Shown here one piece after another: positions 1 to 33,016 of a stretch of DNA of 37,371 bases. The notes under the pieces were generated by a model. It worked only from the letters and a program-made list of their open reading frames with translations, had not been told where the DNA came from and made no database searches. Location: the NCBI GenBank assembly GCA_002709525.1, contig PARE01000003.1, forward strand, positions 1 through 37,371, in the 5' to 3' direction. The stretch comes from Magnetovibrio sp. (GTDB lineage Bacteria; Pseudomonadota; Alphaproteobacteria; Rhodospirillales; Casp-alpha2). The stretch's first letter is position 1; each line of letters starts with the position of its first letter. The position numbers and the translations under genes were made by a program.

Positions 1-580
1 GAGGCGTCCATAGGAAAATGATGGCGAACAGCGCGATTGCGCCCCAACCGATATCTCCTGTCACCGCCGTCCAGCCGATCATCGGCGGGAAAGCGCCAGA
101 GGCGCCACCGATCACAATGTTTTGCGGCGTGCGGCGCTTTAACCATATAGTATAAATAAAAACATAAAATAGAATCGTGAATGCTAACAGAGTGGCAGCT
201 GCGAAGTTAACGAAGAGATGCATGTTGACGATGGACCCCACCGAAAGAAGACCACCGAAAATCAATGCTTCCTTTGGGTTCATCCGCCCGGCCGGAATCG
301 GCCGGTCCTGAGTACGATGCATAATTCGGTCGATATCCTTGTCGTACCACATGTTGATGGCGCCCGATGCACCAGCGCCGGCAGCAATGCAGATAACCGC
401 AATAATCGCTGTCTCTAGACCAACAGATCCGGGCGCCAAGATCAGTCCACAGAGCGCCGTAAACACAACCAAGGACATGACCCTGGGCTTCAGCAAGAGT
501 GCGTAGTCTTGTAGCCGAAAGTGCGGTTCTATAGTTGTATCAGTCTTGGTCTTTGGAAAATCCGTGGCGGTCTTGGGCAC
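1..580 (-). CDS. ctaB: Protoheme IX farnesyltransferase (heme O synthase), 3' end cut by window edge
   Basis: A UbiA-family membrane prenyltransferase that converts heme B to heme O, the precursor of the heme A used by the oxidase next door. The reverse strand encodes about 193 residues before the left edge, out of roughly 300 usual for the family. The first Asp-rich prenyl-diphosphate motif [15 protein letters not shown] is present, followed by RPIPAGRM and later [19 protein letters not shown], all typical of CtaB/COX10. The start is taken as GTG at 578-580, because the first in-frame ATG lies inside the first membrane segment and no other start codon was found upstream. It lies 74 bases downstream of the oxidase-like gene on the same strand and is probably the last gene of that divergent operon. 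The C-terminal part is not visible. Confidence 0.93.
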
Positions 581-654: not shown

Positions 655-2058
655 TCATAGGTCGACGCGACGCAACAGCGCTACTCCGGAAATACAGATG
701 AACATTACACCGCCGACTACCGCGATGACTGCACCAATGCCCACACTGTAGAGGCCAATCTGCGCACCAAGAGCTTCGATTGTCTGATCATATGCGGCGG
801 TCTTGCGCGGCGCCCCATAGCCACTGGCCAGGAACAAGCCCAAAGAGTGTAGCGTTTGGCCCGTCGCGTAGAACCAAACGGACAAGAGCTGCGCCCGGCC
901 CGGTCTGAGGTTTCGGCCCATGAGCGGCAAGAAAAATCCGATAAAAAGGCCCATAAAGGCTAGATTAATTCCACCGATGACACCGTGATAATGGGCCGGG
1001 GTGCGAGTATCCGCGCCATCTACGAATATTCCTAGCATGCCACCAAGGCCAAAAACCGCGATGGACATCACTAAACAGAGGAATCGCACATCGGTCCACG
1101 TCCGCGTAGCGGCCAAAACCGTCTTACATCCAAGGAGGGCTACCAAAAGCGTCGGCGGCACAAAGGCATACTGCAACATGGTGAAGGCGCCAATCTGATC
1201 GCTGTCAAAAGGATCAAAAAGCACGAAAAATAGGGGCGCCAATAGAGCAGCGCCAATTAGAAAAACATGGGCAACGCCGTGTTGATTGGGCCTGACAAAC
1301 GGCGTTCCCAGCGCCAGACCACCCAACAAATACCAAGAAGTGATCAACAAGGCGACGTTCATGAATTGCAATACATGGCCACCGCCCCAGAACAGGTTTT
1401 CGAAGTAAGCACCATCTACCGGCGCTCCTATAAGGAGGTAACCCGCAATACCTACACACGCTAAAGCTGCCAAGAACAACAAGCCGCCATTAACGGCACC
1501 AAGCGATAGCGGCTCCAATGGCGCGTCCCGGCCAGCTACGGCGACAAAAAGACGCACCACTACTAGACACAGGGACACCGCCAATACAGCCAAACCAGCG
1601 TAATACAATGGATCCAAGATCATGGGGATGTAATTGTTTAAGCTGGGCTCACCCCGGTCCATGAGTGCAGGTAAGAACAACATTACCGACGCCACATATC
1701 CTAATCCAACGGCCGCCATGTTTAGTCCCCAGCCCTTCGGTTGGCTTCCACACATCCGGTATGCCGCCACTGTGGCCAAGGCACCGAACACACTTAGGAA
1801 CCAGACCACGAAGGAAAAAATAACATGAACCACCATGCCTTTACTGAAAAAAGCCACCGGCAGCGGCGCCAACTGCCCAAACCCAGGCACCCGTGAAAGC
1901 GCAACCAACAGCGCAAAAAAACCAGCTATCGCCAGCGCCGCGAGGGCTAAGCCGCACCAACCGCGCAATTCAGTCCGCGCCTGTTTTGACGACGTAGCAT
2001 CGGCGAATCCGGCATAGATATCCCAGCGCTGCGCCCTGGCGGGTTTGAAAGCGGCCAT
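655..2058 (-). CDS. Heme-copper oxidase subunit I-like membrane protein lacking most CuB ligands
   Basis: A 467-residue protein with about 12 hydrophobic segments, the number of the heme-copper oxidase core. By eye it aligns with CoxA in the same window. His78 (MVVHVIF) matches the helix II low-spin heme ligand. His356 and His358 (AHYHGVIGG) match the high-spin and low-spin heme ligands of HFHY. His228 (WGGGHVLQF) matches the first CuB His, but the Glu and cross-linked Tyr of HPEVY are absent. The helix VII His-His pair falls on Leu276-Phe277, and the K-channel Lys is also missing. I infer that it binds heme but is not a normal oxygen reductase; it could be an assembly or sensor paralogue, or an atypical NO-reductase relative. 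The start at 2058 is chosen because it follows the DUF420 stop by 5 bases, whereas a longer frame would overlap that gene by 85 bases. Confidence 0.8.
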   Translation of the reverse strand: MAAFKPARAQRWDIYAGFADATSSKQARTELRGWCGLALAALAIAGFFALLVALSRVPGFGQLAPLPVAFFSKGMVVHVIFSFVVWFLSVFGALATVAAYRMCGSQPKGWGLNMAAVGLGYVASVMLFLPALMDRGEPSLNNYIPMILDPLYYAGLAVLAVSLCLVVVRLFVAVAGRDAPLEPLSLGAVNGGLLFLAALACVGIAGYLLIGAPVDGAYFENLFWGGGHVLQFMNVALLITSWYLLGGLALGTPFVRPNQHGVAHVFLIGAALLAPLFFVLFDPFDSDQIGAFTMLQYAFVPPTLLVALLGCKTVLAATRTWTDVRFLCLVMSIAVFGLGGMLGIFVDGADTRTPAHYHGVIGGINLAFMGLFIGFFLPLMGRNLRPGRAQLLSVWFYATGQTLHSLGLFLASGYGAPRKTAAYDQTIEALGAQIGLYSVGIGAVIAVVGGVMFICISGVALLRRVDL

Positions 2059-2063
2059 TGCGT

Positions 2064-2516
2064 TTAAGACGAGTGAACCGGAAACATGTGGACTGCCATC
2101 ACGTAGACGACCACACCGGAGACCCCCACGTAAATCCACAAGGGCCAAGTCCAGCGCGCCAAACGCCGGTGCCGGTCAAACTCAGCCTTTAGCGCCAAGA
2201 GAACAGTCCATGGGACTAACGGAGTAATCGCTATGGCGCCCAGGACATGAACCACCAAAATGGTGAAATAAACCGGCCGGATCCAGCCTTCGCCTCCAAA
2301 CTTCGCAAACCCAGAATTCGCCTTATAGATCACGTAGAAGATCAGGAACAGCGCCGACACTGCCAGCGCCGAAATCATGGCCGCTCGATGTTTGTTACGA
2401 TCACCGTTACGAATAAACAGATAGCCAGCCAACAAACAAAGCACGGATAGACCGTTCAGCCCCGCCATCACATGGGTGAGGTCCTGGACATTGAAATTCA
2501 GGTTTCCAAGGATCAT
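2064..2516 (-). CDS. DUF420 (YozB/CtaM-like) membrane protein
   Basis: A 150-residue integral membrane protein with about four hydrophobic segments. Diagnostic DUF420 features are NKHRAAMISALAVSALFLIF, a central YFTILVVHVLGAI segment, and a C-terminal RHRRLARWTWPLWIYVGVSG segment with conserved His residues that could bind heme or metal. A Gram-positive member, CtaM, is known to be needed for maturation of a heme-copper oxidase. Here the gene sits between a tiny membrane protein and the oxidase-like protein, 3 and 5 bases from its neighbours, so co-translation is likely. A role in oxidase maturation is inferred from family and context. Confidence 0.88.
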   Translation of the reverse strand: MILGNLNFNVQDLTHVMAGLNGLSVLCLLAGYLFIRNGDRNKHRAAMISALAVSALFLIFYVIYKANSGFAKFGGEGWIRPVYFTILVVHVLGAIAITPLVPWTVLLALKAEFDRHRRLARWTWPLWIYVGVSGVVVYVMAVHMFPVHSS

Positions 2517-2519
2517 CTA

Positions 2520-2630
2520 TCAATACATCTTTACGAAGATGCCGAAGTACATGCCAAGTGCTGCCAAGGCCAAAACAGCTCCTAACGCCAAGTTACGGCG
2601 GCGAATGTCATTTTTGTCGTCATCGCTCAT
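2520..2630 (-). CDS. 36-residue single-helix protein, possible CoxF-like oxidase assembly factor
   Basis: A very short gene with a charged N-terminus (MSDDDKNDIRRRN) followed by one hydrophobic helix (about residues 14-32) and a basic end (FVKMY). Similar small proteins beginning with acidic and arginine-rich residues before a single helix occur in alphaproteobacterial cytochrome oxidase clusters near ctaB and ctaG, often annotated as CoxF or as small assembly proteins. The start at 2630 is supported by a GGAG motif about 10 bases upstream; the longer frame from 2723 has no recognisable content. It is the first gene of the divergent operon and ends 3 bases before the DUF420 start. Function is inferred from context only. 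Confidence 0.65.
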   Translation of the reverse strand: MSDDDKNDIRRRNLALGAVLALAALGMYFGIFVKMY

Positions 2631-2857
2631 ATCAACATCTCCGACGGCTGCGGTCAGTAAATAATCTCGATGGCAGTTGGTTACAACGAAAAGAGTGGGG
2701 AAAATTAGCTTCGCTCCAGCCAAGTTTAGACGATTTCCATGGTGCCAATGAGAATAATTGTTCTATGGCATTGATTGCCACTCCAGTGCTTGCGTGTAAG
2801 TGTCGGGGCGGATAAAAATACCTCTTCAAAGATGTCTCTGGCCTGATTATATACCTG

Positions 2858-2874
2858 ATAGTGAGTGTCACTAT
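2858..2874. promoter_or_regulatory. Inverted repeat upstream of coxB, candidate operator
   Basis: ATAGTGA and TCACTAT form perfect 7-base arms around a 3-base spacer. The repeat ends 27 bases before the coxB start, in the 271-base divergent region between the small-protein operon and coxB. That position suits a repressor or activator site acting on either operon. No regulator is encoded nearby and the arms are short, so the role is a guess. I could not assign promoter boxes in the rest of this divergent region with confidence. Confidence 0.3.
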
Positions 2875-2901
2875 GCAAACAGCTTTCGATCAAAAAAACG
2901 G

Positions 2902-3771
2902 ATGATGAGAATGCACAACAGACTGTTTGTCGCAATTTCAACAATGATCATAGGGATGTCGATGCATCCAGGAATGGCTTTGGCAGATAAGGTCGAAATG
3001 CGGTCCAAGCCGTGGCAAGTATTTTTTCAGGACCCTATGTCGCCCACAGCCGAGAAGATATATGATCTAAATGTATTCTTACTTTGGATAGAGGTCATAA
3101 TCACAGTTTTTGTTTTGGGTCTGATGGCATACATCTGCATCAGGTTTAGGGCCAAGGCGAACCCCACGCCGTCGAAAACAACTCACAACACGCCGTTGGA
3201 AGTTCTTTGGACGGGTGTTCCAATCCTTATTCTTGTAATTATCGCCGTCCCATCCCTTAAAGTTCTCTATTTTGCTGATAAAACGCAAGATGCCGAAATG
3301 ACGCTGAAGGTTATTGGCAATCAGTGGTATTGGACTTACGAATACCCGGATCATGAAGGTCTTACTTTCGACAGCTACCCTATCCCTGACGAAGAGCTCA
3401 AAGAGGGGCAACCAAGGCTTTTAAGTGTAGACAATCCAGTTGTGCTTCCCGCAAAAACCAATATTCGTCTACTAATGAGCTCAAATGACGTTATACATAA
3501 CTGGGGTATGCCCTCACTGGCAATCAAGCTTGACACAACTCCCGGGCGAGTAAACGAGACTTGGACCCACATCAATCAGCCAGGTGACTATTACGGGATG
3601 TGCTCCGAACTTTGCGGCGTCAACCACAGTTTTATGCCTATTCATATTAAAGCGCTCCCAAAATCGGAGTTCAATGAATGGATCGCCTCGGCGAAGAAAG
3701 AATTCGCTAACAACATAAAACTAGGAAATGATTTGCCGGTGCGTTCAGCGCAAGCTGCGGCGGCCAGATAG
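2902..3771 (+). CDS. coxB: Cytochrome c oxidase subunit II (aa3 type)
   Basis: Carries the binuclear CuA centre that accepts electrons from cytochrome c and passes them to subunit I. The product has 289 residues. It starts with a signal sequence (basic MMRMHNR, hydrophobic stretch, then GMALA before DKVEM), followed by two membrane helices (about 55-80 and 95-120) and a periplasmic cupredoxin domain. All CuA ligands are visible: His199, Cys234, Glu236 (backbone), Cys238, His242 and Met245, in the pattern [12 protein letters not shown]. The aromatic electron-entry patch [10 protein letters not shown] is intact. There is no C-terminal cytochrome c domain, so it is an aa3 rather than caa3 subunit. 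The start at 2902 is chosen to give a normal signal peptide; ATG at 2911 is also possible. Confidence 0.95.
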
Positions 3772-3818
3772 TAACAGACTTACAGATCGTCACCTGTATT
3801 CATCAAGAAGGTAATAAA

Positions 3819-5429
3819 ATGGCCGATATTGCGGAAGTCCACCAAGAAGATCACGACCACCACATGCCCGGGTTTTTTACTCGCTGGTTCTGTTCCACCA
3901 ATCACAAGGACATTGGGACACTTTACATACTTGTTTCTTTCGTAGCCGCGATTATAGGTGGAGCGATGTCTTGGTACATTCGCTTGGAACTAGCAGAACC
4001 AGGCGTCCAGTACATCGACGACTTTCAATTTTATAACGTGCTGGTTACTGCCCACGGCTTCTTGATGGTTTTCTTTGTTGTCATGCCGGCGATGATTGGG
4101 GGTTTTGGCAACTGGTTCGTGCCATTGATGATCGGCGCGCCAGATATGGCGTTCCCTCGGATGAACAACATATCTCTCTGGCTTCTTGTGGCAGCATTAA
4201 TCCTTTTGCTACTTTCGGCTGTAATTGGTGACGGGCCAGGTACAGGCTGGACAGTGTATCCGCCGCTGTCGAATCAGGATTATCATCCTGGTCCTTCGGT
4301 TGACCTCGGTATTCTGTCCCTACACTTGGCAGGCGCGTCCTCGATCCTTGGTGCTATCAACTTCATTGTCACCATTTTTAACATGCGCGCACCAGGAATG
4401 ACCATTCACCGCATGCCCCTGTTCGTCTGGGCGATGTTAGTTACAGCGTTTTTGCTGCTACTGGCTCTGCCAGTTTTGGCCGGAGCGCTAACAATGCTGC
4501 TAACTGACCGCAATTTCGGCACAGCATTTTTCGTTCCGGGCCAGGGTGGTGATCCAGTGCTTTGGCAGCATTTGTTTTGGTTTTTTGGCCATCCAGAGGT
4601 CTATATCATTATCATTCCAGCGTTTGGTATTGTAAGCCAAGTCGTTTCCACCTTCTCAAATAAGCCCGTGTTCGGTTACCTAGGGATGGCCTACGCCATG
4701 GCTGCTATTGGCGTTGTTGGATTTGTTGTCTGGGCCCACCACATGTTCACCATCGGTTTCGATGTTGGCACGCGGGCTTACTTCACGGCGGCGACCATGG
4801 TGATTGCCGTACCAACTGGCGTAAAGATTTTTTCTTGGCTTGCCACCATGTGGGGTGGATCGATCAAGTTTGAGGTTCCAATGCTGTGGGCGCTTGGCTT
4901 TATTTTTCTGTTTGTTGTGGGTGGTGTCACAGGTATCACTTTGGCTAACGCGAGTGCGGATCTCGTTTTCCACGACACTTATTTCGTGGTTGCCCACTTC
5001 CACTATGTAATGGCCATCGCAGCAATTTTTGCCATGTTTTCTGGCTATTTTTACTGGGTAGGAAAGATGAGCGGTCGCAAGTATCCCCGCGGCCTGGCAA
5101 TGGTCCAATTCTGGGTGTTTTTTATTGGCGTCAATGTTTTATTTTTCCCACAACACTTCTCAGGCTTCGCTGGCATGCCGAGACGCATACCAGACTATCC
5201 GACAGCATATGAGGGCTGGAACTACGTGTCATCCGTGGGCGCACTAATTACGATGATTGGAACAATCCTCTTTTTTATCATCGTGTGGCGCACGTACTAC
5301 GGGGTAAAAGCCGAAGCAAACGAGTGGGGTGAGGGCGCCAAAACGCTCGAGTGGACTGTTGCATCTCCTGCCCCCTGGCATACCCATGAAATCCTGCCGG
5401 ACATGACCGGTAAGGCTCCTGCAGAATAA
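3819..5429 (+). CDS. coxA: Cytochrome c oxidase subunit I (aa3 type)
   Basis: The catalytic heme a / heme a3-CuB subunit, reducing O2 to water and pumping protons across the inner membrane. The 536 residues carry the full ligand set: His79 (TAHGFLM), His258 in HPEVY with its cross-linking Tyr, the His307-His308 pair (WAHHMFT), and His393 and His395 (HFHYVM). The D-channel Asp ([12 protein letters not shown]), the helix VI Glu in HPEVY and the K-channel Lys (GVKIFSW) are all present, which marks an A-family proton-pumping enzyme. An AAGAAGG ribosome site lies just upstream of the ATG. The gene follows coxB by 47 bases. Confidence 0.98.
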
Positions 5430-5441
5430 AAATTTAGGATA

Positions 5442-6041
5442 ATGCAAGTGTCAACAATGGCTATTCGCAAGAAGAGCAACGGAAAGTTAGCGTTGGCCCT
5501 TGCAGGGTTCGTAGCTGCAATGGTGGGTTTAGCCTACGCATCTGTACCGCTTTATGAGTTATTCTGCCAAGTCACGGGATATGGTGGCACCCCACAGGTC
5601 GCTGCCGCGGCCCCCGGTCCCTTATCAAATGAGAAGATCACCATCCGCTTTGATGCAAACACCAATCCAAAATTACCTTGGAAATTTGAAGCTTCGCGAG
5701 GCGAAATAGCTGTGAGGCCGGGTGAACAAACCCTCGCCTTCTATAAAGCACAAAACCTTGGAGGTGAGAGTGTCACTGGAACGGCAGTATTTAACGTTAC
5801 ACCGCTGAAGGCTGGGGCTTATTTCTCGAAAATCCAATGCTTTTGCTTCACTGAACAAACCCTGACAGCTGGCCAGCAGGTCGACATGCCGGTGCAGTTT
5901 TTTGTCGACCCGGAGATCCTCTCTGACCCGGACACAAAAGACGTTAACACTATAACGCTATCTTACACGTTTTATCCCTCGAAATCGGAGGACAAATCCG
6001 TCAATACTGTCAAAAAAAATTACAACTGGAAGAAAAGCTAA
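5442..6041 (+). CDS. ctaG: Cytochrome c oxidase copper chaperone CtaG/Cox11
   Basis: A membrane-anchored copper chaperone that delivers copper to the CuB site of subunit I. The 199 residues show an N-terminal basic segment, one membrane helix (about 16-36, ending in YASVPLYELFCQVTGYGGT, a strongly conserved Cox11 stretch), and a soluble immunoglobulin-like domain. The copper-binding motif CFCF lies at residues 133-136, inside IQCFCFTEQTL. An AGGA motif precedes ATG 5442; ATG 5457 is an alternative start. It sits 12 bases after coxA, between coxA and coxC as is usual in alphaproteobacteria. Confidence 0.97.
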   Translation: MQVSTMAIRKKSNGKLALALAGFVAAMVGLAYASVPLYELFCQVTGYGGTPQVAAAAPGPLSNEKITIRFDANTNPKLPWKFEASRGEIAVRPGEQTLAFYKAQNLGGESVTGTAVFNVTPLKAGAYFSKIQCFCFTEQTLTAGQQVDMPVQFFVDPEILSDPDTKDVNTITLSYTFYPSKSEDKSVNTVKKNYNWKKS

Positions 6042-6070
6042 TTATTTAGCGCTTATCATGGAGACCCCTC

Positions 6071-6886
6071 ATGGCTAGCTCTGAGAGCAATCACCCGTAC
6101 CACATGGTAAAGCCCTCCAAATGGCCATTTCTTGGTTCATTGGCCGGGTTTATAATGGCTACGGGAGGTATCTATTACATGCACGGCGGCAGCATTTTCG
6201 CTTTACTCGCCGGTACAGCTTTAATGCTCTATGTCATGTACGGTTGGTGGCGTGATGTCATATTCGAGGCGGAGGGTGGCATCGACCATACAAGCGCTGT
6301 CAAACACGGGCTTCGGGTCGGCATGGTTTTGTTCATTACATCCGAAGTATTGTTCTTTTTTGCTTTTTTCTGGGCCTTTTTCGACGCGACGGTTCCGTTT
6401 ATCACGCGAACCGCTCATGAAGTGTGGCCACCGGAAGGCGTTGTGCCGTTCCCGGCATTTGGCATCCCGTTCTTGAACACGCTTATCCTACTGACGTCCG
6501 GCGCAACGGTGACCGTAGCACACCATAAAATTCTACACGGTGACCAGGCAGGTTGCGGTCGCTGGCTGGCTTATACTGTTTTGTTGGGCTTTTTTTTCAC
6601 CGGGTTGCAGGCCTACGAATATGCTCAAGCTACTTTCGGCTTCACTGATGGCATCTATTCGTCGACCTTTTATCTGGCCACCGGCTTTCATGGCTTCCAC
6701 GTCATCGTCGGCACTCTATTTTTGCTGGTATGCTATTTTCGTACCCAAAAGGGGCACTTCACAGCTGATACCCACATCGGGTTCGAGGCGGCCGCCTGGT
6801 ATTGGCACTTCGTTGACGTGGTCTGGCTTTTTCTCTTCGTCGCCATCTACTGGTGGGGCGGTTCAGGATACGTACCAGCATCCTGA
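6071..6886 (+). CDS. coxC: Cytochrome c oxidase subunit III
   Basis: The third core subunit, a seven-helix membrane protein that stabilises subunit I and helps proton uptake. The 271-residue length is normal. Typical stretches are the N-terminal HPYHMVKPSKWPF, then EVLFFFAFFWAFF with its helix III Glu, TGFHGFHVIVGT, and the C-terminal AAWYWHFVDVVWLFLF. A GGAG ribosome site lies about 8 bases before the ATG. The gene follows ctaG and overlaps or abuts the DUF983 gene. Confidence 0.97.
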   Translation: MASSESNHPYHMVKPSKWPFLGSLAGFIMATGGIYYMHGGSIFALLAGTALMLYVMYGWWRDVIFEAEGGIDHTSAVKHGLRVGMVLFITSEVLFFFAFFWAFFDATVPFITRTAHEVWPPEGVVPFPAFGIPFLNTLILLTSGATVTVAHHKILHGDQAGCGRWLAYTVLLGFFFTGLQAYEYAQATFGFTDGIYSSTFYLATGFHGFHVIVGTLFLLVCYFRTQKGHFTADTHIGFEAAAWYWHFVDVVWLFLFVAIYWWGGSGYVPAS

Positions 6887-7287
6887 AGAATTTGCCGATA
6901 GCGGATGAGTGCCCTGAACTCACTCTCGGGAAACTCATCCTTCGTGGCCTCCGAGGCCAATGTCCTAGATGCGGCCGGGGGCAAATTTTTTCTTCGTATT
7001 TGACCTTGGCCGATGCCTGTCCAAATTGTGGCCTTAAACTCACAGGCAGTGATGTCGGTGACGGCCATGTCGTCCCGGTCATAATGATGATCGGAGGGCT
7101 AATCATCGCTATGGCCACAGTGATGGAGTTAACGTGGCAATTACCATTGTGGCTCCATGCCATTCTTTGGTTTCCGCTGGCCGTTATTCTCGTCACCCTG
7201 ATCCTACCACCAATTAAGGGCCTCTTTGTCGCCATGCAACACCGCTATCGTTCAACCGAGGGGGATACCCTTCCTGGTGGGCAATAG
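6853..7287 (+). CDS. DUF983 membrane protein with zinc-ribbon motif
   Basis: A small membrane protein of the DUF983 family, regularly found right after coxC in alphaproteobacterial oxidase operons. The first half has two CxxC pairs, CPRC (37-40) and CPNC (56-59), likely binding zinc, followed by two hydrophobic helices (about 72-92 and 98-120). The GTG start at 6853 would overlap coxC by 34 bases; TTG at 6892, six bases after the coxC stop, is an equally plausible start and would lose 13 residues without touching the conserved part. The function is unknown, with an assembly role assumed from synteny. No SURF1 gene follows, although it often does in related operons. Confidence 0.85.
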   Translation: MGRFRIRTSILKNLPIADECPELTLGKLILRGLRGQCPRCGRGQIFSSYLTLADACPNCGLKLTGSDVGDGHVVPVIMMIGGLIIAMATVMELTWQLPLWLHAILWFPLAVILVTLILPPIKGLFVAMQHRYRSTEGDTLPGGQ

Positions 7288-27807: not shown

Positions 27808-27834
27808 GCCCTGGTCAGTTGACCAGGGCTTTTT
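27808..27834 (+). terminator. Rho-independent terminator of the importer operon
   Basis: GCCCTGGTCA and TGACCAGGGC pair perfectly around GT, followed directly by TTTTT (27830-27834). It lies 26 bases after the last permease stop and separates the importer from the exporter gene. Confidence 0.93.
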
Positions 27835-27902
27835 CATTTGCATATGAGAGCTATACACTAAAGTTGTGTCAGTCTGTCATCAGTATTTTTACAGGAGATA
27901 GT

Positions 27903-30900
27903 ATGTACTTTGACTCTCGCCTTTGGACGTTCACTGAAGGTGTACGCGACCGCATCGCTTATGCAGTTTTGATCGGCCTTCTCGCGACATCCACGGGGAT
28001 TGCACGCCTGGCATTACTGGGCTGGGTCATCGGCAAGGTATTCAATGGCGCACACTTTGATGAAATCCTTCTACCCGCAGTCATGGTGGCACTGACCATG
28101 GTCGCACGCGGCGGCCTAGAATACTGGCGCAACATGGTCGCCCATGAGACTGCGGCGCTGGTGCAGCGCCATATTCGCCGCGTTATTTATGCCAAGATCG
28201 TTCAACTAGGCCCGGCTCATTTTGGCCTACAGCGCACCGGCGATGTCTTGGTATCCCTGGTTGACGGTGTGGAGCAGTTAGAAACCTATTTTGGGCGCTA
28301 TCTACCGCAATTATTCGTAGCAGCGCTGACACCATTGCTAATCCTCGTTTTCGTCGTCTACTTGGATTGGTTAGTCGCCCTTGTGCTAACCGGCTCGGCC
28401 TTGATTACCTTGGTCGCGCCCATGACCTTCCATGCCATCGACAAGAATAACTCGCTCGCGCGCTCCAAATCGTACAAGGCCTTCGCTGCTGACTTCCTTG
28501 ATTCCATCCAAGGATTGGCAACTTTAAAAGCCTTTGGCCAGTCTACGCCCAAGATTAATGAACTGGCTGTTCGAGCCCGTGACTTGTTCCGCTCCACGAT
28601 GTGGGTGTTGGCTACAAACGCTGCTGCGCGCGGCATCACCGATACGGGGATCACCGTCGGCGCAGCGGCGGCTTTGGGCGTCGGTGCATGGCGGGTGACC
28701 GGTGGGAACATGACGCTCGAAGTTCTGGTCATCGTCCTAATGCTGGGTACGGAGGTTTTCCGTCCGCTTCGCGACCTTCGTTCCCTTCTGCACAGCGGCA
28801 TGGTGGGTATGTCGGCGGCACTGGGCATATTCCAAATTCTGGACGCCGAGCCTCTCGTCACGGATGCCGATGGTTTAGAGGTCGATCAACTCGACCCGAC
28901 GATTTCATTTGATCACGTGGCGTTCCGCTATCCGGGAAATCCGGACGTGGCACATCAAAACATCACCTTCGATATTGAAGCTGGGGAGCGGATCGGGGTC
29001 GTCGGTCCGTCAGGTTCCGGCAAGTCGACAATCTTGAAACTTTTATTGCGCCTTTACGAGCCTACGACTGGCACCATTCGCGTTGGCGGCGAGGATATTC
29101 GGGATTTAAGCTTTGCCGCACTCCGCCGCCACATGGCCGTGGTCAGCCAGGACACCTACTTGTTTCATGGCACCGTGGAAGAGAACCTAAGGTTCGGCAA
29201 ACCCGATGCAACGCCGGAGGAACTTGAGATTGCCATCCGCAACGCCAACGCTCATGAGTTCATCAGAAAACTCCCGGAGGGACTAGCTACCGTCATCGGT
29301 GAGAGGGGAATCAAATTATCCGGTGGCCAACGCCAGCGGATCGCCATTGCACGCGCACTGTTACGCGACACGCCGATCCTAATGCTCGATGAAGCGCTTT
29401 CGGCCGTTGATGCGGAAAACGAATGGATTATCCAAGACGCCCTTGACCGCCTAATGGAGGGGCGCACCACATTGATCTTTGCGCACCGCTTGTCCAGCGT
29501 GATCGACGCAGACCGCATCCTCGTTTTGGAGGGAGGGCGCATTGCCGACCAGGGGACCCATCCGGAGTTGATTTCTCGTAAAGGTGCATATCGCACACTG
29601 ATGGCGGCCCAGGCCGCCGAGGGCAGCGGCGCAACCGTTCTTTTAGGTACGGAGCGGGACGTAAACAATCCGGGACCAGATGAGACGGGGGGGTTTTTCA
29701 GCGCCTCAAACGAAGGCCCTACTGATGCTATTATTCGTGCCGAGGGATTAACCTGGAGTTCAGCCTTCAAGAAGCTTTTGACCCATATGTATCCATGGAA
29801 GGTAAAATTCTGCCTAACCTTATTCTTCGGGGTCACCCGGGTCTTTGCCTATATCGGTGTCGGCGTCGTGAGTGCTCTGGCTGTAGCCGCGGTCAAGTCA
29901 GGACAGCCTTTCCTTCCCCATATCGTCTGGCTTTGTGTACTGGCGCCTATCGCTGGGCTGTTCCATTGGCTCGAGTCCTGGATTGCCCATGATATGGCCT
30001 TTCGCATGCTATCGGAGATGCGGATAGAGCTATTTCGAAAACTCGATAAGCTCGCTCCCGCTTATCTCCTGACTCGACGTAGCGGTGACATGGTGGGTAT
30101 GGCAACCCAAGATGTGGAAATGGTGGAGTACTTCTTTGCTCACACGGTGGCGCCGGCGTTCGTTGCACTTTTGGTCCCGGCCCTGGTGATGATCTTCTTA
30201 GGAACTATGGGATGGCCCCTGGCACTGGCACTGTTTCCGTTTCTAGCCTTGGTCGCCATCAGCCCCTTTCTTGCCCGGAAACGGCTCGACAGCCTGGGTT
30301 CGCAAACGCGAGAGTCCCTCGGTGAGCTCAACGCGCATGCTGTCGATACGGTCCAGGGCCTTGCCGAGGTCGTTGCCTTTCAGAAGGCGGATGCTCGGGG
30401 GCAGGAATTCGATCACAAGGTTGGCCACTACCTGACTGTTCGCCTTCCTTTCTTCCGAGATCTCACCTTTCAAACCTCACTTTTAGAAACCGTTACTGGC
30501 CTTGGTGGCGTGGCCGTGGTTATCACTGGGGCATCCTTAGTCCAACAAGGCCACTTGGACGGCGGTCTCCTCCCGTTACTTGTCATCCTTGCCATGGCCG
30601 CGTTCCTGCCGGTTTCAGAAATCGCCCACATCGGCCGTCAACTCGCGGATACGCTGGGTTCAGCCCGACGCTTGCACGCAGTTGAGCACGAAAGGATTCC
30701 TGTTGCCGATGGGCCCGGCATCGATCAGGCTATTTCCGCAGAGCTCTGTCTAAAGCGGGTTTCTTTTACCTACCCAGGACGCACATTGCCGGCCTTAGAC
30801 GAGGTTAATCTCTCGATTGAACCAGGTCAGACATTAGCCCTGGTAGGTCCATCGGGAGCCGGCAAGACTACGCTCGCGCACCTTCTTCTTCGGTTCTGGG

Positions 30901-31478
30901 ATCCACAGTCTGGACATATTATTTTTCAGGGCTACAACCTCAAGGAACACCGACTCGATGATCTTCGGGCGCGCATGGCGCTGGTGGCGCAGGACACCTA
31001 TTTGTTCAACGCAACGCTCCGGTCTAACATTCTGTTAGCCCGGCCGGATGCGGACGAATTTGCGCTTGAACAGGCCATCCAGCGCGCAGCGCTGAACGAT
31101 TTTATCGCTGGCCTGCCAGACGGGTTGGATACGCCTGTTGGCGAGCGCGGCATGCGACTATCTGGTGGCCAGCGACAGCGAGTGGCTATTGCGCGCGCCT
31201 TCCTTAAAGATGCGCCGATCTTGATTTTAGATGAGGCGACGTCACATCTGGACGCCGTAAGCGAACGAAAGGTTCGCCAGGCTCTGGAGGAGCTCATGCA
31301 CGACAGGACTACAGTGATTATAGCACATCGCTTGTCCACAGTTCGTGATGCGGACAAAATTGTCGTCATGAAAGATGGACGCATTGCCGAACAAGGGTCA
31401 CATGACGAACTCTTGGCCAAGGGCGGTCTCTACACCCATTTAGTGCAGCGCCAGATGACAGGTGCGGCGGCTGAATAA
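27903..31478 (+). CDS. Fused double ABC exporter, CydDC-like (two TMD-NBD modules in one chain)
   Basis: A 1191-residue type I (exporter-fold) ABC protein with both half-transporters on one polypeptide. Module 1 has membrane helices up to about 310 and an ATPase with Walker A GPSGSGKST (about 368), signature LSGGQRQR (471) and Walker B ILMLDEALSAVD (491). Module 2 has helices about 630-920, Walker A GPSGAGKTT (981), signature LSGGQRQR (1084) and Walker B ILILDEATSHLD (1106). Both ATP sites look competent. The transmembrane parts recall CydD and CydC (thiol/heme-related exporters), but no cydAB is present. AGGAGA precedes the ATG; an in-frame extension to 27819 would run into the terminator. 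Confidence 0.9.
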   Translation: MYFDSRLWTFTEGVRDRIAYAVLIGLLATSTGIARLALLGWVIGKVFNGAHFDEILLPAVMVALTMVARGGLEYWRNMVAHETAALVQRHIRRVIYAKIVQLGPAHFGLQRTGDVLVSLVDGVEQLETYFGRYLPQLFVAALTPLLILVFVVYLDWLVALVLTGSALITLVAPMTFHAIDKNNSLARSKSYKAFAADFLDSIQGLATLKAFGQSTPKINELAVRARDLFRSTMWVLATNAAARGITDTGITVGAAAALGVGAWRVTGGNMTLEVLVIVLMLGTEVFRPLRDLRSLLHSGMVGMSAALGIFQILDAEPLVTDADGLEVDQLDPTISFDHVAFRYPGNPDVAHQNITFDIEAGERIGVVGPSGSGKSTILKLLLRLYEPTTGTIRVGGEDIRDLSFAALRRHMAVVSQDTYLFHGTVEENLRFGKPDATPEELEIAIRNANAHEFIRKLPEGLATVIGERGIKLSGGQRQRIAIARALLRDTPILMLDEALSAVDAENEWIIQDALDRLMEGRTTLIFAHRLSSVIDADRILVLEGGRIADQGTHPELISRKGAYRTLMAAQAAEGSGATVLLGTERDVNNPGPDETGGFFSASNEGPTDAIIRAEGLTWSSAFKKLLTHMYPWKVKFCLTLFFGVTRVFAYIGVGVVSALAVAAVKSGQPFLPHIVWLCVLAPIAGLFHWLESWIAHDMAFRMLSEMRIELFRKLDKLAPAYLLTRRSGDMVGMATQDVEMVEYFFAHTVAPAFVALLVPALVMIFLGTMGWPLALALFPFLALVAISPFLARKRLDSLGSQTRESLGELNAHAVDTVQGLAEVVAFQKADARGQEFDHKVGHYLTVRLPFFRDLTFQTSLLETVTGLGGVAVVITGASLVQQGHLDGGLLPLLVILAMAAFLPVSEIAHIGRQLADTLGSARRLHAVEHERIPVADGPGIDQAISAELCLKRVSFTYPGRTLPALDEVNLSIEPGQTLALVGPSGAGKTTLAHLLLRFWDPQSGHIIFQGYNLKEHRLDDLRARMALVAQDTYLFNATLRSNILLARPDADEFALEQAIQRAALNDFIAGLPDGLDTPVGERGMRLSGGQRQRVAIARAFLKDAPILILDEATSHLDAVSERKVRQALEELMHDRTTVIIAHRLSTVRDADKIVVMKDGRIAEQGSHDELLAKGGLYTHLVQRQMTGAAAE

Positions 31479-31492
31479 AAAAGGACAAAACC

Positions 31493-33016
31493 ATGAAAAA
31501 ACGAATTGCCCTCATGGGTATGCATTTAGAAGCCAACGCCTTCGCACCTGTGTCGACGGAAGCCGATTTCCGCTCCGCTGGCTACTACGTGGGCGAAGAA
31601 ATCACAAACGACTTGGCACAGGCTAACCCCCGCACGGCCGCTGAACTCTCCGGTTTCATCACAGAAATGGACGATCAAGGCATCGCTTGGCAACCGGTGC
31701 CGATCCTCATCACCGGCTCCGAACCGGGTGGGCCCGTAGACCATGCCTTTTTCGAACGTACGATGGCCGAGATGAGATTTCACCTCAAAGCGGCACTACC
31801 TTTAGATGGCGTTTTTTTCTCCGCCCACGGCGCAATGACGTCGACGGATACCACTGATCCTGATGGCGCACTTTTTGAGATGGTACGCGATGTGATCGGC
31901 CAAGACACACCTCTGATAGCTACCCTTGACCTGCATGCAAATATCTCCGATCGGATGGTAGAGAAAACAGATATCCTTGTCGCCTATATCACCAATCCGC
32001 ACGTAGACCAGCGCGAACGTGCGGCAGAAGCAGCTAATCTAATGGTCGAAATGTTTGACGGCATGAAACCAGAGGCCGTATTCATCCGCGTCCCCATGGT
32101 TTCACCGCCTGTAACTCTTTTATCGGCCCGCGGCCCCTATGCGGACCTGATCAACTACGGCCAGGAACGCAAAAATAACGCCATTGCAAACGTCTCCTTG
32201 TTGGCCGGTTTCGCCTACGGAAACACTCCCGAGAATGGCCTCTCCGTGATCGTAACCGGGCGAGACGATCGCAGCAGCGCGAAGGCCCTGGCACAGGATA
32301 TCGCACAGCGTGCCTGGGACAGCCGAGAACAGTTCGCGATTTCCCTCACGTCCATTCCCGAGGCTGTCGCTCAAGCAAAGGCCTGTGGCGAGGATGCCGG
32401 TCTTCCCGCAGTAATCATGGCAGATTGCGCCGATAATCCGGGCGGTGGCGGACGCGGCAATACTCCGCATATACTCCGCGCCCTTATGGAGTCCGATGTG
32501 CAGAGTTGCTACGCCGGTATATTCTATGACAAAGCCTTGGCCGCGGAAGCGCACGAGTTGGGTTTGGGAGCTCAGTTTTCCGCAGTCCTCAATAGGACCT
32601 CGGAGAACGAATTTTCTGAACGCTTTGAATTCGACGCCGAAGTTGTTGGGCTTCATGATGGTGTCTGCGTCGGCACACTGGGGATTTACGCAGGCCGAAC
32701 GGTAGACTTGGGGCCGTCAGTGCATTTGAAGATTGGAGGAATAGACCTAATCGTTGTATCCAGACGGAAGCAATGTGGCGATCCCGAATTCTTCCGTATG
32801 TTTGGCCTTAAGATGGAAGACGCGAGAAGCGTTTTGGTGAAATCTCGCGGCCACTTCCGGGCGGGCTTTCTGCCCTGGTTCTCTCCGGAGCAAGTCATTG
32901 AAGTGGATGCGCCTGGACTAACTTCCAATATCTTTGCCAACTTTTCTTTTGATGGCTACAAGCGACCCATATACCCACTTGATAAAGACATGGACTGGGA
33001 AGTCCCGACCGGATGA
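31493..33016 (+). CDS. M81-family metallopeptidase (MlrC/microcystinase C-like)
   Basis: A 507-residue zinc hydrolase of the MlrC family, the founding member of which finishes microcystin breakdown by cutting a linear tetrapeptide. The metal ligands Asp146 and His148 (ATLDLHANIS) and His170 (NPHVDQRER) are in place, as are EANAFAPV near the start, SAHGAM, and the C-terminal-domain stretch ADCADNPGGGGRGN. It has no signal peptide and so should be cytosolic. It follows the exporter by 14 bases with an AAGGA ribosome site. Family members beside peptide importers are common, so cleavage of unusual amides or peptides brought in by the upstream importer is a reasonable inference. Confidence 0.92.
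   Translation: MKKRIALMGMHLEANAFAPVSTEADFRSAGYYVGEEITNDLAQANPRTAAELSGFITEMDDQGIAWQPVPILITGSEPGGPVDHAFFERTMAEMRFHLKAALPLDGVFFSAHGAMTSTDTTDPDGALFEMVRDVIGQDTPLIATLDLHANISDRMVEKTDILVAYITNPHVDQRERAAEAANLMVEMFDGMKPEAVFIRVPMVSPPVTLLSARGPYADLINYGQERKNNAIANVSLLAGFAYGNTPENGLSVIVTGRDDRSSAKALAQDIAQRAWDSREQFAISLTSIPEAVAQAKACGEDAGLPAVIMADCADNPGGGGRGNTPHILRALMESDVQSCYAGIFYDKALAAEAHELGLGAQFSAVLNRTSENEFSERFEFDAEVVGLHDGVCVGTLGIYAGRTVDLGPSVHLKIGGIDLIVVSRRKQCGDPEFFRMFGLKMEDARSVLVKSRGHFRAGFLPWFSPEQVIEVDAPGLTSNIFANFSFDGYKRPIYPLDKDMDWEVPTG

What the first reader, a model, noticed from the sequence alone, without database searches (positions are those of the whole stretch)
655..2058. Heme-copper oxidase homologue that keeps heme ligands but has lost most of CuB
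Compared by eye with CoxA in the same window, this 12-helix protein keeps the three heme His (78, 356, 358) and one CuB His (228). It lacks the helix VII His pair (Leu276-Phe277 instead), the HPEVY Glu/Tyr and the K-channel Lys. It sits in an operon with ctaB, DUF420 and a tiny membrane protein, divergent from the real oxidase. It could be a heme-loading or sensing paralogue, or an unusual NO-reductase relative.
Basis: partly seen in the sequence, partly recalled or inferred. Interest (0 to 1): 0.62.

Follow-up and report, generated by a model that had tools for sequence, protein, structure and literature searches.

The report
Copper-less oxidase look-alike, likely heme loader
Many bacteria that breathe with the mitochondrial type of oxidase carry a second, crippled-looking relative of its main subunit that keeps the heme pockets but has lost the copper site, and it occurs mostly where the usual heme-loading helper SURF1 is missing, so it is probably an alternative way of loading heme into the real enzyme.

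Summary
Window 655-2058 (minus strand; 'HCOx') encodes a 467-aa, 12-helix heme-copper oxidase homologue. It keeps the three heme histidines (78, 356, 358), the propionate Arg-Lys pair and one CuB histidine (228), but lacks the helix VII His pair, HPEVY Glu/Tyr and K-channel Lys. It is not one decayed gene: 63 of 63 aligned homologues keep H78, H228, H356 and H358, and none has the His pair. In the window's order it lies in DUF420-HCOx-ctaB near the aa3 operon (DUF420 at 44 of 45 loci); in other Pseudomonadota often beside ctaA. Among 302 CtaA-positive genomes of a 397-genome phylum sample, 34 have HCOx without SURF1, 256 SURF1 without HCOx, 5 both, 7 neither. Best explanation (about 0.5): a catalytically dead COX1 relative that handles heme A for the real oxidase and usually stands in for SURF1. 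Heme binding and transfer are inferred. The counts are not corrected for kinship, large surveys scored only the best candidates, and in three genomes both genes lie close together. The nearest statement found in print is a remark on a 'deranged' COX1-like gene clustered with ctaB in Acetobacter.

The parts
655..2058 (-). HCOx: 467-aa CuB-less heme-copper oxidase (COX1) homologue
   Evidence: open frame; Pfam COX1 2.8e-19; AF2 pLDDT 92.6, COX1 fold; homologues
1825..1827 (-). codon of His78 (helix II, low-spin heme ligand)
   Evidence: maps to CoxA H79; 63 of 63 His
1375..1377 (-). codon of His228 (the one CuB-type His kept; motif GHxLQ[FY])
   Evidence: maps to CoxA H258; 63 of 63 His, Q231 63 of 63
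1222..1233 (-). codons 276-279 (LFFV) where the CuB His-His pair would be
   Evidence: no His here; column 277 is His in 0 of 63, column 278 in 11 of 63, all outside the window's order
985..993 (-). codons of His356-Tyr357-His358 (high-spin and low-spin heme ligands)
   Evidence: map to CoxA H393/H395; 63 of 63
802..807 (-). codons of Arg418-Lys419 (heme-propionate pair)
   Evidence: map to CoxA R455/R456; R 61 of 63, K 61 of 63
2064..2516 (-). DUF420 (CtaM family) membrane protein, 5 bp upstream of HCOx
   Evidence: Pfam DUF420 4.7e-41; directly upstream at 44 of 45 homologous loci
2520..2630 (-). 36-aa one-helix peptide (Coa3-like, weak)
   Evidence: sequence printed, where tblastn finds it at 6 of 45 loci; the longer 67-aa frame has a sub-threshold match to Coa3_cc, E 0.0056
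2..580 (-). ctaB, heme O synthase (cut by the window start; start codon chosen by eye)
   Evidence: Pfam UbiA 1.3e-48; downstream on the same strand at 42 of 45 loci
2800..7287 (+). divergent aa3 oxidase operon: coxB 2800-3771 (start uncertain), coxA 3819-5429, ctaG 5442-6041, coxC 6071-6886, DUF983 6853-7287; no surf1 listed
   Evidence: Pfam/NCBIfam; no SURF1 match in the assembly G000, which is 82% complete

Best explanation
HCOx is a catalytically dead COX1 relative recruited as a heme A handling factor for the aa3 oxidase. It keeps a COX1-like pocket for a low-spin heme (H78/H358) and a high-spin heme (H356) with the propionate-binding Arg-Lys, while the CuB/tyrosine site is dismantled so that it cannot reduce O2. 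It most likely receives heme A (or O) from CtaA/CtaB, holds it in the membrane and helps pass it to newly made COX1, taking over in most lineages that have it the role otherwise filled by SURF1. In the window's order it works with the CtaM-type protein DUF420. Shown here: predicted fold, ligand pattern and its conservation, gene neighbourhoods, co-occurrence with CtaA, near-exclusive occurrence with SURF1 in the sample. Inferred: that hemes are bound, that one is heme A, and the direction of transfer.
For: Heme ligands 63 of 63, CuB His pair 0 of 63. DUF420 directly upstream at 44 and ctaB downstream at 42 of 45 loci; aa3 coxA or coxB at 39 of 45. ctaA lies within about 270 bp of HCOx in 21 of the 39 CtaA+ genomes of the 41-genome set, in 7 families (coordinates). 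CtaA present in 39 of those 41; SURF1 in 6 of the 41 against 261 of 397 in the phylum sample. In 302 CtaA+ genomes: HCOx only 34, SURF1 only 256, both 5, neither 7; outside the class 32/115/1/2. By family outside the class, CtaA+ genomes only: HCOx only 9, SURF1 only 29, one family with both. In the window's order SURF1 is in 3 of 61, while three genomes of the order's family f26 have SURF1 and no HCOx. In family f179 nine genomes have both CtaA and HCOx and the four listed without CtaA are not among the HCOx hits. A TPR-tailed branch lies with CcsA/ResB-like heme-handling genes.
Against: SURF1 lies 1.1-2.6 kb from HCOx in G040, G049 and G657, and both genes occur in G034, G107, G153, G580, G626 and G637: not a strict replacement; in the class 4 of the 6 HCOx+ genomes of the phylum sample have SURF1. 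Seven CtaA+ genomes of the order's 52 and seven of the sample's 302 have neither; G039 (99% complete) has coxBA-ctaB-ctaA with neither. G364 and G401 have HCOx without CtaA; G401, and G343 by frame length, match only with the TPR-type copy. The sister group of three-His oxidases also lies near ctaA/ctaB/SCO, so adjacency alone could mean a heme A/O-containing enzyme. A cupredoxin-like gene (Pfam tested for L120 only) with a CuA-like motif lies upstream of HCOx at L120, L122 and L123 and in L102, so a subunit II partner is not excluded there. Counts follow kinship: outside the class the families separate completely but for one, and HCOx genomes there have CtaA genes scoring higher on the Pfam model than most SURF1 genomes, so few switches may underlie the table. 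DUF420 was not surveyed outside the order and could be the real substitute there. The 2026 proposal for CtaM/DUF420 is copper export, not heme (PMC13344008).
Confidence: 0.5

Rival explanations
1. HCOx is a two-heme membrane electron carrier that feeds electrons to CtaA (heme A synthase), whose bacterial donor is to my knowledge unclear, rather than a heme carrier.
For: Beside ctaA in seven families; low-spin and high-spin heme sites kept, no catalytic site.
Against: Does not explain the near-exclusive occurrence with SURF1; in the window's order the gene goes with ctaB/DUF420, not ctaA; G401 has an HCOx (TPR type) without CtaA.
Confidence: 0.18
2. HCOx is a structural partner that stabilises CtaB or CtaA or acts as a COX1-shaped template, without needing its own hemes (the role suggested in print for a COX1-like gene clustered with ctaB in Acetobacter).
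For: Linkage to ctaB (42 of 45 loci) or ctaA; passage in PMC10715153.
Against: All heme ligands are invariant in 63 of 63 sequences, which a pure scaffold would not need; the Acetobacter protein is described as lacking all metal ligands, and its orthology was not tested.
Confidence: 0.12
3. HCOx handles copper or redox: with DUF420/CtaM it reduces or hands over copper for CuB of the real oxidase.
For: Of 49 genomes of the order with either gene, 47 have both HCOx and DUF420; CtaM is proposed to export or reduce copper in B. subtilis (PMC13344008, passages); 11 of 63 homologues keep a second CuB-type His.
Against: No Cys or Met column is invariant or nearly so; outside the order the common neighbour is ctaA, though SCO genes lie within about 5 kb at several loci.
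Confidence: 0.1
4. HCOx is an enzyme after all (NO or O2 reductase of a divergent type) or a gas/redox sensor.
For: Nearest relatives are tyrosine-less three-His oxidases, a kind suspected of NO activity in print; Tyr at position 232 in 8 of 63 and one His kept; a CuA-like gene near HCOx at a few loci.
Against: Two of three CuB/FeB ligands, the HPEVY Glu and the K-channel Lys are absent; at most loci no subunit II other than that of an aa3 set was found; CtaA in 39 of 41 HCOx genomes.
Confidence: 0.1

Closest known systems
Tyrosine-less, three-His 'degenerate B-type' oxidases (my 'Q group', GH[SA]SQQI; possibly 'ba3-a1' of PMC6431628, identity not tested)
   Same: Sister clade in a tree rooted on two CoxA sequences, 100% ultrafast bootstrap; heme ligands; Gln at His+3; some also near ctaA/ctaB/SCO
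   Different: They keep the helix VII His pair and are about 560-600 aa; HCOx lost it and is about 467 aa
B-family ba3 oxidase of Thermus thermophilus (solved structures)
   Same: Best solved relative by profile (E 1.7e-21) and by Foldseek; same fold and heme ligands
   Different: ba3 has CuB (three His) and the cross-linked Tyr (recalled); HCOx has one His and Phe
CoxA (A1 aa3 oxidase) of the same window
   Same: Fold family, heme His, propionate pair
   Different: 21% identity over 345 aligned columns; CuB pair, Tyr and K-channel Lys absent in HCOx
SURF1 (heme A chaperone)
   Same: Same apparent niche: genomes that make heme A
   Different: No SURF1 match for HCOx at E up to 1; SURF1 has two membrane spans and a large outer domain (PMC9145763), HCOx twelve
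'Deranged COX1-like protein' clustered with ctaB in Acetobacter (PMC10715153, citing a 2014 paper not held)
   Same: A COX1-like gene kept in a cluster with ctaB, thought to have lost its own catalysis
   Different: Described as lacking all metal ligands; HCOx keeps all heme ligands; orthology not tested here

Membership tests
Heme-copper oxidase superfamily (COX1, PF00115) | 12-helix COX1 fold | tested here: met
   AF2 pLDDT 92.6, 12 long helices; Z 29.9-32.3 in the 50 rows shown; Pfam 69.7 bits, cut-off 34.8. Some distant relatives fall below that cut-off
Heme-copper oxidase superfamily (COX1, PF00115) | bis-His low-spin heme site and proximal His of the high-spin heme | tested here: met
   H78/H358 and H356, 63 of 63 sequences; by alignment only, heme itself not shown
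Catalytic oxygen reductase (A, B or C type) | three His ligands of CuB | tested here: not met
   H228 only; helix VII pair absent, 0 of 63 have it
Catalytic oxygen reductase (A, B or C type) | cross-linked Tyr near the CuB His | tested here: not met
   F232 at the HPEVY position; F 54, Y 8, A 1 of 63; the helix VII position used by C-type enzymes (recalled) was not examined apart
Catalytic oxygen reductase (A, B or C type) | own subunit II or electron-entry subunit | tested here: inconclusive
   the coxB of the window belongs to the aa3 operon; no coxB match near most ctaA-linked copies, but a cupredoxin-like gene with a CuA-like motif near HCOx at L120, L122, L123 and L102
NO reductase (cNOR/qNOR) | FeB site with three His plus Glu (recalled) | tested here: not met
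   same missing His pair
SURF1 (PF02104) | SURF1 sequence domain | tested here: not met
   no match at E up to 1
SURF1 (as a role) | binds heme A and promotes its insertion into COX1 | not testable with these tools
   only phyletic and neighbourhood evidence
Degenerate B-type (three-His, Tyr-less) group | helix VII His pair with Gln in place of Tyr | tested here: not met
   separate clade, both clades 100%; pair absent

The most novel reading that the evidence does not exclude
A CuB-less COX1 relative is the second general solution of Pseudomonadota to loading heme A into cytochrome oxidase: a 'dummy COX1' that accepts heme A from CtaA/CtaB in a COX1-shaped pocket and hands it to the real COX1, replacing SURF1 across nine sampled families outside the class and most of an order of Alphaproteobacteria, with a TPR-tailed branch serving other heme routes.
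Probability: 0.4. Interest if true: 0.85.

Novelty: new variant of a known kind. Interest (0 to 1): 0.72.

Why it matters
[quoted passage not shown] A protein that keeps the COX1 heme pockets, lacks the catalytic copper site and occurs mostly in heme A-making genomes without SURF1 gives a direct handle on that question: trapping a COX1-shaped heme A intermediate, or rescuing a SURF1 deletion with an unrelated protein, would show what the step needs. It also warns that a COX1-family match need not mean an oxidase.

Tried and rejected
NO reductase or oxidase function for HCOx: not preferred, because the CuB His pair is absent in 63 of 63 sequences. Pseudogene or assembly error: rejected, open frames in many genomes with invariant ligands. 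Strict dependence on DUF420: in the order one HCOx genome lacks DUF420 (G047) and one DUF420 genome lacks HCOx (G013, its DUF420 in a different neighbourhood); outside the order not surveyed. Strict SURF1 replacement: rejected as a rule because of the overlaps and the genomes with neither. Search of plasmid records for named carriers: no match. A first FastTree run held five wrong reading frames for the sister group and was discarded; it was redone (one search stopped on a thread setting after building the alignment). The motif scan for the small peptide returned 8 of 45 loci, of which only two (L017, L019) look alike by eye.

Limits of the counts. In the phylum and class surveys at most 4 or 6 candidates per genome were scored for HCOx, so HCOx genes may be missed in genomes with many oxidases; in the relatives survey all were scored. 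G051's weak match (5e-6, 27% identity) was not counted, leaving 48 of 61: the window itself, 45 fetched loci, and two fragmentary ones not fetched (G008, G048). Two of the 41 phylum hits (G401; G343 by frame length) are of the TPR type only; without them 'HCOx only' would be 33. One SURF1 and one CtaA hit lie under the Pfam cut-off; the CtaA one (G393) is among the seven with neither. A1 has 37 rows: P0001 and 36 of the 45 loci, nine left out to thin the set (all 45 are in the alignment, where the same ligands are kept). A2 has 63 rows; L111, L117, L124-L127, L129, L131, L132 and L136 were left out as extended or cut frames (motifs). The tree has 90 rows. Handles and family numbers for searches were copied from call outputs; list lengths equal the tool tallies (41, 261, 302). 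The figure 21 of 39 for ctaA was read by eye from the coordinates.

Papers: PMC9145763 (passages and one section), PMC10715153, PMC8239418, PMC6431628, PMC13344008, PMC8879329, PMC4013037 (passages), PMC5249081 (abstract and outline). The 2014 Acetobacter paper was not seen, only its reference. Searches that listed no paper I recognised as describing this family or linking it to SURF1: (open-access PMC only; listings, not full texts).

Full report
What is there. The minus strand of window 655-2058 encodes a 467-residue protein, called HCOx here. Pfam COX1 matches it at 2.8e-19, no NCBIfam model matches at E up to 1, and phmmer finds no PDB chain at E up to 1; a profile of 63 relatives finds Thermus ba3 oxidase at 1.7e-21. 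The AlphaFold2 model (mean pLDDT 92.6, pTM 0.93) has 12 long helices; its best Foldseek match is Thermus ba3, and the 50 rows shown by VIA-align, Z 29.9-32.3, include COX1, cbb3, NOR and ba3 chains, too close in Z to rank.

Metal sites. Against the window's CoxA, the low-spin heme pair (H78, H358), the high-spin heme His (H356), one CuB His (H228) and the propionate pair (R418, K419) are kept; the HPEVY Glu and Tyr are L230 and F232, the K-channel Lys is V306, and the helix VII His pair falls in L276-F277-F278-V279, none of them His, with a one-residue uncertainty of register between alignments. Over 63 homologues H78, H228, Q231, H356, Y357 and H358 are invariant, R418 and K419 are in 61 of 63 each, column 277 is never His, and column 278 is His in 11 of 63, all outside the window's order. 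So a partial remnant of the copper site survives in some relatives, while the heme scaffold is invariant. That hemes are bound is inferred from these residues.

Neighbourhood in the order. 48 of 61 relatives, the window's genome included, carry HCOx (the weak match in G051 is not counted). In the 45 loci fetched, DUF420 is directly upstream at 44 and ctaB lies downstream on the same strand at 42, with aa3 genes coxA or coxB in 39, mostly divergent as in the window. DUF420 and HCOx are spaced by about -76 to +31 bp, and ctaB follows within 500 bp at 40 of the 42. HCOx and DUF420 occur together in 47 genomes; one has only HCOx, one only DUF420, 12 neither. The 36-aa peptide before DUF420 is found by tblastn at 6 of 45 loci.

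Elsewhere. In an even sample of 241 genomes of the class HCOx proper is found in 4 (the window's own, G107, G238, G153; the other 11 genomes listed are weaker matches to the three-His sister group). In 397 genomes of the phylum 41 have a match at 1e-45 or better, two of them only of the TPR type described below. Outside the order the neighbour is often ctaA: within about 270 bp in 21 of the 39 CtaA-positive genomes among the 41 (coordinates; fetched loci; Pfam identity). DUF420 is near HCOx at L103, L114 and L134. A separate branch carries a C-terminal TPR stretch (Pfam-tested for L127, by eye for L124-L126 and L129) and lies beside CcsA- and/or ResB-like cytochrome c biogenesis genes at L124-L128. 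In a maximum-likelihood tree of 90 sequences, rooted on two CoxA proteins, HCOx including this branch is one clade (ultrafast bootstrap 100), sister to a group of three-His, tyrosine-less oxidases (100).

Relation to heme A synthesis and SURF1. In the window's order SURF1 is found in 3 of 61 genomes and CtaA in 52 of 61. In the class sample SURF1 is in 189 of 241. In the phylum sample SURF1 is in 261, CtaA in 302 and HCOx in 41 of 397. Among the 302 CtaA-positive genomes 34 have HCOx only, 256 SURF1 only, 5 both, 7 neither (Fisher p 1e-32, not corrected for kinship); outside the class the figures are 32, 115, 1 and 2; within the class 2, 141, 4 and 5. No SURF1-positive genome of the sample lacks CtaA; two HCOx-positive ones do (G364, G401). 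Counting families of CtaA-positive genomes outside the class, 9 have HCOx only, 29 SURF1 only, one has both. So outside the class 147 of 150 heme A-making genomes sampled have exactly one of the two. Inside the class the pattern is weaker: four of the six HCOx-positive genomes of the phylum sample also have SURF1. In the order's 52 CtaA-positive genomes 42 have HCOx only, 3 both, 7 neither and none SURF1 only; the SURF1-only members of the order come from the phylum sample.

Checks within groups. In the window's order the family f26 (G283, G572, G575) has SURF1 and no HCOx hit; in G283 one of its two SURF1 genes lies at the end of a canonical coxBA-ctaB-ctaG-coxC-DUF983 operon. In family f179 nine genomes have both HCOx and CtaA, and the four listed without CtaA are not among the HCOx hits. 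Against the simple reading, SURF1 lies 1.1-2.6 kb from HCOx in G040, G049 and G657, G580 has both with its SURF1 beside a cox operon on another contig, G039 has neither although its cox operon with ctaB and ctaA is there, and the sister three-His oxidases also lie near ctaA, ctaB or SCO in several loci. A cupredoxin-like gene with a CuA-like motif (motif recognised from memory) lies upstream of HCOx at L120, L122 and L123 and in L102, so a subunit II partner cannot be excluded there.

How it most likely works. SURF1 of Paracoccus binds heme A and is suggested to modulate heme A synthase, store heme A and chaperone its insertion, but a 2022 review says the role is unclear and the insertion step unknown (PMC9145763, section read). 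A protein with COX1's two heme sites, no copper site, and genes beside ctaA or ctaB fits a heme A handling role: take heme from the synthase, keep it in a native-like pocket, pass it to apo-COX1. The order of maturation given there (low-spin heme a, then heme a3, then CuB) is compatible with a partner that stops short of CuB. DUF420 (CtaM) is needed for oxidase assembly in Bacillus although heme a and a3 form without it, and was proposed in 2026 to export copper (PMC9145763 and PMC13344008, passages), so the window's operon may pair a heme step with a copper step. All of this paragraph beyond the cited statements is inference.

What is known. [quoted passage not shown] I could not test whether that gene is an HCOx; HCOx differs in keeping every heme ligand. 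A related group described tyrosine-less B-like oxidases of unknown function (PMC6431628, passage), which may be the sister group found here. The listings of nine searches showed no paper that I recognised as describing HCOx as a family or linking it to SURF1; the library holds open-access papers only.

Verdict. The feature is real, conserved and widespread. It is a new variant within the heme-copper oxidase superfamily, not a catalytic member by its residues, and the SURF1 pattern makes a specific, testable proposal. The main weaknesses are kinship in the counts, incomplete scoring of candidates in the large surveys, the untested distribution of DUF420 outside the order, and the lack of any measured heme.

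Noticed in passing
L124-L129 (L127:6245-8167): HCOx-like proteins of one branch: five of six carry a C-terminal TPR-like stretch (L124-L127, L129; Pfam-tested for L127 only; L128 is cut by its contig end), and five of six (L124-L128) follow CcsA- and/or ResB-like cytochrome c biogenesis genes; four (L124, L125, L127, L128) also have a conserved large protein (CxxCH motifs in the one printed) and three of these a lipoprotein with NHL-like repeats (name recalled).
   Followed up: partly
L062-L068, L072-L083: Three-His, tyrosine-less oxidases (GH[SA]SQQI, HH kept) form the sister clade of HCOx; of L062-L068, six of seven have a ctaA, ctaB or SCO match in the stretch fetched.
   Followed up: partly
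window 27819-31478: A 1219-aa ABC exporter with two transmembrane and two ATPase domains fused in one chain (two stretches each of PF00664 and PF00005).
   Followed up: no
window 31493-33016: M81-family metallopeptidase of the MlrC (microcystinase C) type, downstream of what look like oligopeptide ABC transporter genes (by eye).
   Followed up: no
L102, L103, L104, L106, L108, L109, L112, L115, L116, L130, L137: Eleven HCOx relatives outside the window's order keep a His at the second helix VII position, so two of three CuB-type ligands; copper binding there is not excluded.
   Followed up: partly
G039 (L142), G081/G191/G577 (L148-L150): Genomes with CtaA but neither SURF1 nor an HCOx hit; G039 has a coxBA-ctaB-ctaA cluster, so a third solution, or none being needed, is possible.
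   Followed up: partly
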